Below are positions 54,415 to 60,857 of a DNA stretch of 64,000 nt, one piece after another. How positions within the stretch are numbered: position 1 is the stretch's first letter; each line of letters starts with the position of its first letter. The stretch lies in assembly GCA_943736015.1 (NCBI GenBank), contig OX031068.1, forward strand, positions 31,120,296 through 31,184,295. The letters run 5' to 3'. The position numbers and the translations under genes are program-made. Below the pieces are notes generated by a model. That model was not told where the DNA came from. It made no database searches and worked only from the letters and a program-made list of their open reading frames with translations. Source of the stretch: Tridacna crocea. Taxonomy: Eukaryota; Mollusca; Bivalvia; Cardiida; Cardiidae.

Positions 54415-54516
54415 GTCAATCCCAGATGTCTTAGCAAACTGGAGATCTTCCGCACTAGGTGCAGCTATAAATACAACAAACGGAGCAAACTCGGCGGAAC
54501 GTAATACTTTTAAGGC
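54415..54516 (-). CDS. CASK: CASK alternative GK-domain exon, version A (34 codons)
   Basis: This is a 102-nt, phase 0-0 exon between CCACAG (54517-54522) and the donor GTAAGT (54409-54414). It encodes [20 protein letters not shown] and then a 14-residue tail [14 protein letters not shown] that leads into the terminal exon. The core is the guanylate-kinase-fold strand that in CASK follows the ...VEPQ segment. The tail differs completely in length and sequence from the second version at 60777-60857. Both cannot sensibly be included together, because the strand would be encoded twice. Splice sites and reading frame are intact. Confidence 0.88.
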
Positions 54517-54768
54517 CTGTGGAAAATATAGCATAATGCAGGACATGCTGTTACTAGGAACATAATTGAACGTAATGCAGATAATATAATTCACGTATTA
54601 CCTCTCACAGATCACTTTTTTACTCATTTAAGAGCTGACGATATTTTGAAAACATGACTGTATGCTTTAAAACATAAAAGGAGACTAACTTGAGGAAAAA
54701 GGGGAAATTTCATGTGCTAAGCAATTTCTCATTATGCCACAAAGTTATCGCTTTACCACATGGCAAAC

Positions 54769-54947
54769 TTAATTCTCTACCACTCAATCCAAACTTTTAA
54801 CCACCCCTGCAATTCTTTTCCTTTTCCTACAATGTTTTCTACCTTTTCCAAATTAATTTTCAATTTAGGATTCACATCCATTTTGTCGTCTGCAAATGCT
54901 TTCAATTTGGACCAAGTCCAAAATTTTCTTGTTTGCTAAAGAGTTAA
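54769..54947 (+). mobile_element. Family A MITE, stem left arm deleted
   Basis: CCACTCAATCCAAAC start. Right end intact. Confidence 0.75.
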
Positions 54948-55066
54948 AGTGTTATTTGAATGATGGTACTGTATACGTGGATATATATGTGACGAGTTAC
55001 CTACATTTTGCATTCCAAAATGTTTGGGAATTCTAAACAATTGTTATTTGTTGGTATACTTGCAGT

Positions 55067-55290
55067 TATCTCTTTACCACACAACCAAATTTTAGACTTG
55101 TCCAGATTGAAAGCATTTGCAGACAACAAAATGTGACTGAAATATTGAAACTTGTTTTGAAAAGGGTAGAAAACATTGTGGGACAAGGAGAAAATGCTGG
55201 TTACCAGCATTTTCTCCTTTTCCCAACGATGTTTTAATAGGCGTCTTTCTCAAGGTTGTTAAAAGTCGGGATAGTGTGGTAATGAGTTAA
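55067..55290 (-). mobile_element. Family A MITE
   Basis: Stem GTGGGACAAGG / CCTTTTCCCAAC. Confidence 0.8.
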
Positions 55291-55324
55291 AAATATTCAC
55301 ACAGAAAAGTTCATAAATTTTTTC

Positions 55325-55521
55325 AAATTTGCAAAATTGCAAAAATTTCAGAATTGCAAAAAATTCCACTTATATAGTATATTATATCCTTGAACAGAAA
55401 GAAAACAATGTGGGAAAGAGAGAAAATGCTGGTTACCAGCATTTTATCTCTTTCACACTGTGTTTTCAAAGGCTTCTACCCGAGGCCCATCAAAACTTTG
55501 GATTATGTGGTAAAAGGTTAA
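55325..55521 (-). mobile_element. Family A MITE, left end replaced
   Basis: Stem GGGAAAGAGAGAAAATGC / GCATTTTATCTCTTTCAC. Right TTAA intact. Confidence 0.65.
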
Positions 55522-55893
55522 CACATGTCGTCACGTGCAAAATCCCCCTGTCATTTTTATCAGTTTGGAAAGGATGTTTTCCCAAAGTTGTCTGCTTATG
55601 ATGTAGTTATCTTAGGTAATACGTGACAAAAGAAACATAATGCATTTAAAATAGTCAAGCTAGAACAGAAATTAATGCAAAATAACACTGTAACATAATT
55701 ATTCTATTTACTGGCACTCTGCAAATCACATGTAGGATGTTATTTACAGTTTCATACCATCATACATTGGAATCAAGACAAGATATAAATCAATATTTGT
55801 TTTTTAGGGATGGAAACAAAATTTAATACCAAAAGTTTCAATACTTATTTTTAGTATTTTAATCATATTAAATTTTTCTCTTCAAATAATATA

Positions 55894-56117
55894 AATTCAA
55901 CCCTTTACAAAATAACAAAATCTTAGCCTTGTCCAAATTGAAAGCATCAGCAGATAATAATGCCAATGTGAGTCAAATGGTGTGAATTGTCTTTGAAAGA
56001 GCAGAAAGCATTGTGGGAAAAGCAGAAAATGCTGGTAAGTATTTTCTCCCTTTCCTATGTTTTTTAAAGGCTTCTTCCTCTGGGTTGTAAAAACCAGGGT
56101 ATGTTTGGTAAAGGGTA
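55894..56117 (-). mobile_element. Family A MITE, diverged
   Basis: CCAGGGTATG end. Centre partly lost. Confidence 0.7.
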
Positions 56118-56552
56118 AAATGTCGAAATACTGGAATACACCGTTTAGAAACTAATCAATTTGCTGCAATGATTTTAAAATGTCTTGTCCAATGTACCTA
56201 CACAGACCAGCAAGAGTTTACTTTCTTCCCCCAAACATATGCATAGAAACATTTTTAAAAAAAAAAAACTTGTCTAAAAATTTGTGTCCTTTTAAATATG
56301 ATCGCTAGAATTTGGGGACTCTTCAAATTTCAGGAATTTGTAGACAAGAAATTAAATTTTACTCAAAACATGCAGTTTGTCTTTAAAAGAACAGAAAACT
56401 ATAAGAGAAAATGCAAAATAACCGAAACAAAAACTTTCCTCTTTTTTTTTGCCATAAGTAATTAAAACCAACCTCTGCCTTTTTTTTTTTTAACAAACTT
56501 TTCAACTCTTTTTTCATTGGGTTATTAAAAGTTGCAATTGTTTGGCCCAGTA

Positions 56553-56765
56553 TTAACTCTTCCAGATGACAAAATTATAGACTGGTCCAAATTGAAAGCA
56601 TTTGCAGACAACAAAATAAATTTGACTGAAAAATAAAAATTTGTGTTAGGAAGGGTAGAAAACATTGTAGGAAAATGCTGGTTCCCGGCATTTTTTTTTC
56701 CTACAGTGTTTTCAAAAGGCTTTTCAGGGTTGTTAAATGTCGGGGATTGTGTGGTAAAGGGTTAA
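56553..56765 (-). mobile_element. Family A MITE with shortened stem
   Basis: GTAGGAAAATGCTGG pairs with CCGGCATTTTTTTTTCCTAC. Both arms lost the GGAG/CTCC segment. Confidence 0.8.
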
Positions 56766-58705: not shown

Positions 58706-58939
58706 TTAACTCTTTCCCAAACAAGCCCTGGTTTTTACGTGTCTGCAGTACAAGTCTTTAAAAAACACTGTGGAAAAAGGAGAAATTGCTCGTAATGAGC
58801 AATTTCTCCTTTTCCCACAGTGTTTTCTAGCCTATCGGAAAACTTTCTGCCATTCTCATTCTCATCAAATTCAAAATTGTCATCTGCAGACACTTTGAGT
58901 TTGGGACAGTCTTAAATTTGTCATTTGGGAAAGGGTTAA
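58706..58939 (+). mobile_element. Family A MITE, AAATTGCTC stem variant
   Basis: GGAGAAATTGCTC pairs with GAGCAATTTCTCC. Confidence 0.85.
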
Positions 58940-59445
58940 TCAAAGGATGCAGATTATGTTCCATTGAATAACTTAGTTTGCACAGAATGACGTCACTCTA
59001 TATGGAATGACGTCACTACATGGAACAAGGTAGATTTTACCACGCTTTCTTTGCAATGTGTTTATCGAGCCGAATTCACTCGTCATGTTAGAATAAAGAG
59101 TGAAAGTGTTTACGATCAAGCACAAAAATAACTTCTGCAACAAAACTCAATGTTATAATCTATCGTAAAATCTGCAATAGAAACAACATGCTGTTAACGA
59201 TCTATTGAAATGAAATATGTCTAGTAAAATATTGCTTTTTATCTACAAAATATATCATCTAATAAATGCATTATCCTAAACTTTGAAATAGATTCATACA
59301 CATTACGGAAGCGATATGAAATAATAGTTATGATTAATTTCTAAACTTTTAGAATATACACATATGCTATAGCTTCTGTAAATGTGTTTCCTAATAAACA
59401 GATAAAAAACAGTTTTTGTAAAAAAATTTCCACTTATATTGCTCC
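58940..59445. other. CASK intron, unique-looking sequence
   Basis: Apart from the paired CRE octamers near its left end, no repeat or exon is visible. It is among the few repeat-free stretches in this intron. Confidence 0.4.
58988..59015. promoter_or_regulatory. Paired CRE-like octamers
   Basis: Two perfect TGACGTCA sites at 58988-58995 and 59008-59015, in a direct repeat of GAATGACGTCACT, inside the CASK intron between the two alternative exons. CREB/ATF-type factors bind this motif in general. No evidence of use here. Confidence 0.3.
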
Positions 59446-59640
59446 TTAATCCTTTAGCACACAATCCAGACTTTTAACACCTCTTAGAAAGAAGTCTTTT
59501 GAAAACATTGTGGGAAAAGGAGAAAATGCTGGTAACCAGCATTTTCTCCTTTTCTCACCATGTTTTCTACCCTTCACTTTTATTTTGTCCTCTCTAAATG
59601 TTGGACAAGTCTACTACATATTTGTTGTTGTTAATGAGTT
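59446..59640 (+). mobile_element. Family A MITE
   Basis: Right end shortened to GTTGTTAATGAG. Confidence 0.7.
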
Positions 59641-59644
59641 TGTC

Positions 59645-59865
59645 TACTCTTTACCAAACAACCAAATTTTTGATACATCCAAATTGAAAGTGTTTGCAGA
59701 CGACAAAATAAAAGGCAATTAAAAACTGATACTTGTTCCAGCAGGGTAGAAAACATTGTTGGTAAAGGAGAAAATGCAGGTTATCAGCATTTTCTGGTCT
59801 TCCGAGGGTGTTTTCTTAAGGCTTCTACCACACTAAAACTCTGGATTGTTTGGTATGGAGGTAAA
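59645..59865 (-). mobile_element. Family A MITE, diverged
   Basis: Ends GGATTGTTTGGTATGGAGG. Confidence 0.7.
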
Positions 59866-59932
59866 CTCATTTTGTTCATCTATCTTTTTTTTTCTTCCAC
59901 AATATTCTGCCACAAATTAGTTCAGGAGTCAA

Positions 59933-60237
59933 CTAGAACTGTTGCATAGCAGACAAATAACCCCCACCAGGCAACTTGTCACTCAATTAGTACAATCGGA
60001 GAACGGAAATGATTTTTAATACAAAAATCACCAGTGACCTTGACCCATGACACATGTGATCCCAAAACAACATGGCAGCTCCTTGGGTCTAGAGCAACTT
60101 TTGCATAAAGTTTCAACATCATACGTTAAATTGTTTTGTGACTTATAGCACAGACAAATATAAAAAAGATAGACAGACAGGCAAACAGGAGTGAAACCAG
60201 TGTACCCTCCTTTCTACTTTGTACAGTGGAGGGGTAG
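59933..60237. mobile_element. Type H-like repeat, diverged
   Basis: CTAGAACTGTTGCATAGC opens it and GATAGACAGACAGGCAAACA, then GTGGAGGGGTAGAA, closes it. It has the same order of parts as the other type H copies, with an unrelated middle. Confidence 0.4.
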
Positions 60238-60407
60238 AAAAGAGAGGCCAGTTCAATGAAGGGATAGCATAACAGATATGCTTATGATAGCTTTACAGTA
60301 GATATAGCATAGATTCAGTCAGCATATACAAAATGAACATAATATATTTGAAATCTCAACCTTTCAAATATGTGATAATTTTGAAATTTTCAGTGATATT
60401 TGTTGTT

Positions 60408-60620
60408 TTAACCCTTTACTGAACCATCCCAATTTTAACGACCCTCTAACCTTTGAAAACATTCGTGGGAAAAGTAGAAAATGCTGGTAACCAGCATTTT
60501 CTACTTTCTCCATAATGCTTTCCATCCTGTCAAAGAACAACACATACCAAGGAATCTATCGCTCATTCGAACCACTGTAAGATTTGTAGTCTGTAGATGC
60601 TTTCAATATGGTTGTTTGAA
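60408..60620 (+). mobile_element. Family A MITE near CASK exon B
   Basis: GAACCATCCCAATTTTAACG start. Stem GGGAAAAGTAGAAAATGC / GCATTTTCTACTTTCTCC, again altered in both arms (GTAG/CTAC). Confidence 0.7.
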
Positions 60621-60776
60621 CAAACATGTACAATGTACTTTTGATTAGAACTTTTTTCTTCATATCACACATATTTTAAAGAATTGAGATTCTACTGTAG
60701 GTATGGCATCACAACATAGCATTCTGGGACAGCACAGGCCTGTTATTAGGGACCTTTTTAGGGGACCAAGTTTTAC

Positions 60777-60857
60777 CTCTTGTGATGGACGTATTGTGGG
60801 TGCTGCAATAAACACAACAAAGGGGCAGAACTCACGGGTTCTTAAAATCTTTAACGC
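60777..60857 (-). CDS. CASK: CASK alternative GK-domain exon, version B (27 codons)
   Basis: This is an 81-nt, phase 0-0 exon between ATTTTTTCAG (acceptor, ends 60858) and the donor GTAAAA (60771-60776). It encodes [20 protein letters not shown] and the short tail TIRPSQE. Sixteen of the first 20 residues equal those of version A. The Thr-Ile-x-Pro tail is the more like vertebrate CASK (APTITPG...). It lies about 6.3 kb upstream of version A, with only repeats and CRE-like octamers seen between. The next upstream CASK exon is expected beyond 64000. Confidence 0.85.

What the first reader, a model, noticed from the sequence alone, without database searches (positions are those of the whole stretch)
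54415..60857. Duplicated, probably mutually exclusive CASK exon in the guanylate-kinase-like domain
Seen: two exons (54415-54516 and 60777-60857, minus strand) with intact splice sites, both phase 0-0, encode the same 20-residue core with four differences and then unrelated tails of 14 and 7 residues. Both join in frame to the single terminal exon. Known: this segment is one GK-fold strand of CASK followed by a variable loop. Inference: alternative use would swap the loop and an Ala/Arg and Ala/Cys pair in the GK domain, possibly changing partner binding. I am not aware of a description of such a pair, but I could not search.
Basis: partly seen in the sequence, partly recalled or inferred. Interest (0 to 1): 0.8.

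Follow-up and report, generated by a model that had tools for sequence, protein, structure and literature searches.

The report
Paired alternative exons in CASK gene
The gene for the scaffold protein CASK in this animal carries two old, intact versions of the same small exon, which would give its guanylate-kinase-like domain either the short loop of human CASK or the longer segment of ordinary guanylate kinases; the same part of the gene also stands four times in a row in the assembly.

Summary
Observation confirmed. Exons A (60777-60857) and B (54415-54516), minus strand, have GT-AG sites, are phase 0-0 and share a 20-residue core with four differences. Synonymous sites are saturated (pS 0.79, pN 0.16, Fisher p 1e-5): the pair is old and constrained. 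Both fill the slot of mammalian CASK E25, behind a 203-bp exon in both animals (PMC3447378). The tails have a meaning: with tail A the domain matches human CASK and p55 better, with tail B PALS1, DLG, guanylate kinases and the Pfam profile, which B fits without net gap while A is 7 residues short; swapping tails shows that the tail causes this. Best reading: one exon per mRNA, giving a short or a canonical-length segment behind the strand. There is no RNA evidence, and intron pairing was uninformative. Ten paper searches gave no report of such a pair.

The parts
60777..60857 (-). Exon A (81 nt, phase 0-0): short, CASK/p55-type version of the mammalian E25 slot
   Evidence: sequence, frame, splice sites; tail type; 0 of 81 nt vary in four tandem copies
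54415..54516 (-). Exon B (102 nt, phase 0-0): long, canonical guanylate-kinase-type version of the same slot
   Evidence: 1 of 102 nt varies in four tandem copies (V to F in copy 1)
51605..51781 (-). Terminal CASK exon (end of GK domain, ...[10 protein letters not shown], stop), shared by A and B; phase 0 at its start
54517..60776 (-). Intron between A and B, 6260 nt, with many copies of a dispersed palindromic repeat
51782..54414 (-). Intron between B and the terminal exon, 2633 nt
60858..64000 (-). Part inside the window of the 3356-nt intron between the 203-bp GK exon (64214-64416, just outside the window) and exon A

Best explanation
A and B are two ancient tandem copies of one exon (the slot of vertebrate CASK E25), both kept by selection, of which one is spliced into a given mRNA between the 203-bp GK exon and the terminal exon. 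The choice keeps the conserved strand ([16 protein letters not shown]) and changes what follows: A gives the shortened stretch of human CASK and p55/MPP1 (TIRPSQE), B the 7-residue longer, canonical stretch with the P-x-x-E/D-x-L start of guanylate kinases and PALS1 ([14 protein letters not shown]), at the way into the LID part of the fold; it also changes Arg8/Ala and Cys11/Ala. Shown: both exons, their splice sites, frames, homology, age, constraint and tail types. Inferred: that both are used, that use is one at a time, that the segment is in the LID region, and that partner binding changes.
For: Intact sites and frames. Saturated synonymous but low non-synonymous divergence: about 12 of 15.2 synonymous sites against 7 of 44.8 others, p 1e-5. 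Against the human exon [20 protein letters not shown] A differs at 3 of 20 and B at 1 of 20 residues, so neither has drifted as free sequence would. In four tandem copies A varies at 0 of 81 nt against 142 of 2941 surrounding intron columns, p 0.03. Same slot as vertebrate E25 (84 bp) behind a 203-bp exon. Pfam PF00625: A form 188.9 bits, 166 residues on 173 profile positions; B form 200.3, 173 on 173; core A with tail B 197.7; core B with tail A 191.5. PDB: human CASK 1kgd 274.9 (A) against 262.6 (B), p55 3ney 213.7 against 205.3, PALS1 4wsi 122.4 against 134.3, yeast GK 1gky 56.9 against 67.7; of 44 chains found with both forms A scores higher in 3 (the third by 0.3 bits, outside the exon), B in 41. 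Two copies of one strand, or none, could hardly fold (inference).
Against: No transcript of any kind. Frame does not enforce exclusion. No docking signal could be told from repeats. Exon B's constraint across the tandem copies cannot be tested (1 of 102 against 32 of 3043, p 1). A's donor scores lowest of ten exons on a recalled matrix (5.4; B 7.4), which fits regulation as well as weak use. A has two derived core residues. No second species could be examined. A longer tail has more columns to match, so part of B's gain against canonical kinases is length itself.
Confidence: 0.72

Rival explanations
1. Only one of the two exons is used; the other is a silent or rarely used relic or pseudo-exon.
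For: No transcripts. A has the weakest donor of ten exons scored and two derived core residues. The window's own tandem copy has a frameshift in another exon, so intact-looking exons can sit in a broken copy.
Against: With synonymous sites saturated, a free exon would have lost far more than 3 of 20 residues, its frame or its sites. A is unchanged in all four copies while its introns vary. Tail A resembles human CASK's own tail.
Confidence: 0.14
2. A and B are alternative but not exclusive: cassette exons that can also be joined together or both skipped.
For: Every combination keeps the frame (81 and 102 nt); nothing in the sequence forces exclusion.
Against: Both or neither would duplicate or remove a strand of a conserved fold (inference from the alignments).
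Confidence: 0.09
3. The pair is an artefact of assembly: one exon belongs to another gene copy.
For: The locus is a four-copy tandem array, which may itself be partly a stacking of haplotypes; junctions between copies 2/3 and 3/4 could not be read.
Against: A and B lie in the same order between the same two exons in each of four copies. The 200 kb read, with copies 1 and 2 from the L27/PDZ exons of copy 1 through the end of copy 2's SH3-GK part, hold no N. A-B divergence is far above that between the copies.
Confidence: 0.03

Closest known systems
Mammalian CASK exon E24a (Dembowski et al. 2012, PMC3447378; outline and passages seen)
   Same: Alternative splicing inside the CASK GK domain, in the intron behind the 203-bp exon, i.e. 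directly in front of the slot that A and B fill.
   Different: E24a is a mammal-only 120-nt cassette that inserts 40 new residues in front of E25 and has a defective donor; A and B are two homologous versions of E25 itself, which would replace each other.
CASK linker exons 11, 19, 20 and 23L in human brain (PMC8208546; passages seen)
   Same: Alternative CASK exons that change partner binding in that paper (SAP97, liprin-alpha2).
   Different: According to the passage, all of these code for linkers between domains; A/B would change a domain itself.
Calcium-channel beta subunit HOOK exons 7a/7b/7c (PMC3972191; passages seen)
   Same: Mutually exclusive exons in an SH3-GK protein of the MAGUK kind, with an effect on function.
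   Different: They change the unstructured HOOK in vertebrates; according to the passages the mollusc gene uses an alternative acceptor there. Not the GK fold.
Tandemly duplicated, mutually exclusive exons in general (for example muscle myosin heavy chain; PMC3912159 seen in a search listing only)
   Same: Homologous neighbouring exons of equal phase between shared flanking exons.
   Different: Exclusive use is shown there (general knowledge), not here; here the tails differ in length by 7 residues.

Membership tests
Tandemly duplicated, mutually exclusive exons | Neighbouring exons with homologous sequence | tested here: met
   16 of 20 core residues identical; score 84 against 37 for the next best unrelated fragment
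Tandemly duplicated, mutually exclusive exons | Same phase at both ends, compatible with the same flanking exons | tested here: met
   0-0 for both; 81 and 102 nt
Tandemly duplicated, mutually exclusive exons | Intact splice sites on both | tested here: met
   in four of four tandem copies
Tandemly duplicated, mutually exclusive exons | Exactly one of the two in each mRNA | not testable with these tools
   no RNA data; no frame-based enforcement
Tandemly duplicated, mutually exclusive exons | A mechanism of exclusion (steric, U2/U12, docking RNA pairing) | tested here: inconclusive
   A-B intron of 6260 nt and only GT-AG sites speak against the first two; pairing is swamped by a dispersed palindromic repeat
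Tandemly duplicated, mutually exclusive exons | Pair conserved in related species | not testable with these tools
   no animal genomes; the two collections scanned with the GK exon gave no animal sequence
CASK | CaM-kinase-like, L27, PDZ, SH3 and GK parts in order on one strand | tested here: met
   Exon matches to recalled human CASK in order on C13 minus strand, from aa 18 at 31.607 Mb to the C-terminus; a small piece (about aa 418-435) was not found
CASK E24a-type cassette | Unrelated insertion in front of the E25-type exon | tested here: not met
   A and B are both homologous to E25 itself

The most novel reading that the evidence does not exclude
An old splice switch inside a MAGUK guanylate-kinase fold: one CASK gene makes both a CASK/p55-type GK domain with a shortened stretch and one with the canonical guanylate-kinase/PALS1-type stretch, possibly an ancestral animal arrangement of which vertebrates kept only the short tail; in this animal the switch has moreover been multiplied four-fold as part of a tandem amplification of the gene's 3' half behind a single kinase half, which could offer several alternative 3' ends.
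Probability: 0.3. Interest if true: 0.65.

Novelty: new member of a known kind. Interest (0 to 1): 0.45.

Why it matters
If both exons are used, CASK's GK domain, which binds TBR-1 and CINAP according to PMC3447378 (passage), exists in two built-in versions in one animal. Nature would then have made the comparison of the shortened CASK/p55 stretch with the canonical one in the same protein, so the role of that stretch in partner binding becomes directly testable. The four-fold array also warns that gene models of CASK in this genome may join exons from different copies.

Tried and rejected
Docking RNA structures: duplexes of -51.5 and -52.2 kcal/mol between introns (shuffles about -25 to -31) looked like docking and selector sites, but they are copies of a dispersed palindromic repeat (28 exact cores in the 64-kb window; 421-541 BLAST hits per element in 200 kb), so the idea is neither supported nor excluded. 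The other flank pairs tested lay at or near their shuffles.

A third version of the exon: none among the matches in the 200 kb read with recalled human CASK at E below 0.5, nor in the genome with exon B at E up to 10, where the ten matches were four B, four A and two exons of other MAGUKs.

Relatives elsewhere: one scan of genome contigs gave a single bacterial-MAG guanylate kinase-like match (37% identity), one of viral contigs none. No animal sequence is available, so the duplication could be dated only by its saturation.

Score differences due to the core rather than the tail: rejected by swapped tails. Scores due to my typing slip at the E7/E8 joint (see below): repeated with the right residue, same picture.

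Other genes in the window: five long open frames gave no Pfam family at E 0.01; 20 stop-to-stop frames of at least 110 aa were listed and the other 15 not scanned.

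Full report
What is there. They lie between a 203-bp exon of the CASK guanylate-kinase-like (GK) domain, just outside the window (window numbers 64214-64416), and the terminal exon at 51605-51781. The introns are 3356, 6260 and 2633 nt. In vertebrates the 203-bp exon is followed by an 84-bp exon, E25 (PMC3447378, passages); human CASK reads [29 protein letters not shown] there (PMC6663006, passage). A (81 nt) and B (102 nt) both fill that slot.

Chance and age. Against B, the frame with A scores 86, the next best of 4350 stop-to-stop fragments of the window, B's own frame aside, 37. 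Over the 20-codon core 12 of 15.2 synonymous and 7 of 44.8 non-synonymous sites differ (pS 0.79, beyond the range of the correction; pN 0.16; Fisher p 1e-5). The duplication is therefore old and both exons have been under constraint for most of that time. No date in years can be given without other species. From the human core A differs at 3 residues and B at 1. Between the copies of the tandem array A varies at 0 of 81 nt against 142 of 2941 nearby intron columns (p 0.03); for B (1 of 102 against 32 of 3043) there is no power.

What the tails are. Spliced forms were compared with the PDB sequences. Of 44 chains found with both forms, the A form scores higher for three: human CASK 1kgd (274.9 against 262.6 bits), p55 3ney (213.7 against 205.3) and MAGI-2 7ykf (by 0.3 bits, over a stretch that does not include the exon). 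The B form scores higher for the other 41, among them PALS1 4wsi (134.3 against 122.4), the DLG/PSD-95 chains and every chain called guanylate kinase, e.g. yeast 1gky (67.7 against 56.9) (the same picture with a one-residue slip). On Pfam PF00625 the B form covers 173 profile positions with 173 residues (200.3 bits), the A form with 166 (188.9). With tails swapped, core A + tail B gives 197.7 and core B + tail A 191.5, and against 1kgd 260.2 and 277.3: the tail makes the difference. Part of B's gain may be mere length. Core B is the more human-like core and tail A the more human-like tail. In three other MAGUK genes of this genome the same exon reads APNAEAL, PPHLEVL and PPNIEKL where B has APSAEDL and A has APTIRPS; two of the three had been found with exon B as query and one through the terminal exon, so this is a biased sample. 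A published tree puts CASK close to MPP1/p55 (PMC1978500, passage), which fits a shortened stretch in both. That the stretch leads into the LID part of the fold is my reading from knowledge of guanylate kinases; no structure was computed.

The setting. The window is C13:31120296-31184295 of a 1.05-Gb, 31-contig genome. CASK runs on the minus strand. Matches to the kinase, first L27 and adjoining parts (aa 18 to about 435 of recalled human CASK) are listed once each between 31.607 and 31.477 Mb (some weak, E up to 0.3). From the next exon (aa about 437) to the stop, ten exons (E1, E2, E4-E8, A, B, terminal) are found in each of four copies; an eleventh (E3) was read in two copies only. GK exons stand at 31069360, 31184509, 31302627 and 31415385, i.e. 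113-118 kb apart. The window is copy 2 by coordinate, third in the direction of transcription. Copies 1 and 2 align over most of their length at mostly 93-98% identity with many indels and no N in the 200 kb read. Divergence among the four is mosaic: around B 0.4-0.7%, around A copy 1 is 4.2-4.5% from the others, which differ by 0.3-0.5%, around the terminal exon copies 2 and 4 differ by 0.2% but others by 4.2-4.5%. In nine exons joined (435 codons) there are 13 synonymous and 6 amino-acid-changing codons, and one deletion: copy 1 has 3 changes (one at the last base of an exon), copy 2 one change and the deletion, copy 3 two, copy 4 none. Copy 2, the window's copy, lacks one base in its first exon (188 nt instead of 189), which shifts the frame if that exon is used. 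So copy 4, next to the single 5' half, is the likeliest working 3' end, and the others may be spare, decaying or alternative ends; 7 events with none in copy 4 is not significant by itself (0.75^7 = 0.13). Whether the array is real or partly stacked haplotypes I cannot tell: only the copy 1/2 junction was read. In either case A and B are present in all four, so the pair is older than the array.

Mechanism. Everything needed for a choice of one exon is present. Frame does not enforce it, the A-B intron is too long for steric exclusion, and the sites are all GT-AG. On a recalled donor matrix A is the weakest of ten exons (5.4), E8 7.1, B 7.4, the rest 8.5-11.6, which fits regulated use but is weak evidence. 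Intron pairing is dominated by a dispersed palindromic repeat.

What is known. Alternative splicing inside the CASK GK domain has been described once in what I saw: E24a, a mammalian cassette directly in front of E25 (PMC3447378; outline and passages). The human brain variants change linkers only (PMC8208546, passages). Mutually exclusive exons in a MAGUK are known for the HOOK of calcium-channel beta subunits (PMC3972191, passages). Ten searches of the open library gave no account of duplicated E25-type exons in CASK; subscription papers and genome annotations were not searchable, and public gene models of molluscs may already contain both isoforms.

Verdict. A real, old, constrained exon pair with a meaningful difference between the versions; exclusive use likely but unshown; a new member of a known kind, in a new place (inside the GK fold of CASK), in a gene whose 3' half is repeated four times in this assembly.

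Noticed in passing
C13:31.05-31.46 Mb; window = copy 2: Four ~113-118-kb tandem copies of the 3' half of CASK behind a single kinase half, with mosaic divergence; could be a real amplification, possibly giving several 3' ends, or partly stacked haplotypes.
   Followed up: partly
C13:31211430-31211617 (outside the window, copy 2, exon E1, L042): One-base deletion shifts the frame of the first repeated exon in the window's own copy; copies 1, 3 and 4 have 189 nt.
   Followed up: partly
C13:31073446 downward (copy 1, exon E6, last base): Copy 1 has G to A at the last base of exon E6, which weakens the donor and turns Gly into Ser at the start of GAHGVGRR.
   Followed up: no
whole window; e.g. 60462-60506 and 52157-52201: A dispersed palindromic repeat (core AATGCTGGTAACCAGCATT, 28 exact copies in 64 kb) fills the introns; 81 inverted-repeat pairs in 51500-64000. 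Possibly a MITE-like element; not classified.
   Followed up: partly
C13:31056449-31060588 (copy 1, between A and B): The A-B intron of copy 1 is about 4 kb longer than that of copy 2 (gap between aligned blocks).
   Followed up: no
window 33812-34364: Overlapping open frames of 197 aa (+) and 126 aa (-) that look less repetitive than the rest; no Pfam match at E 0.01.
   Followed up: partly
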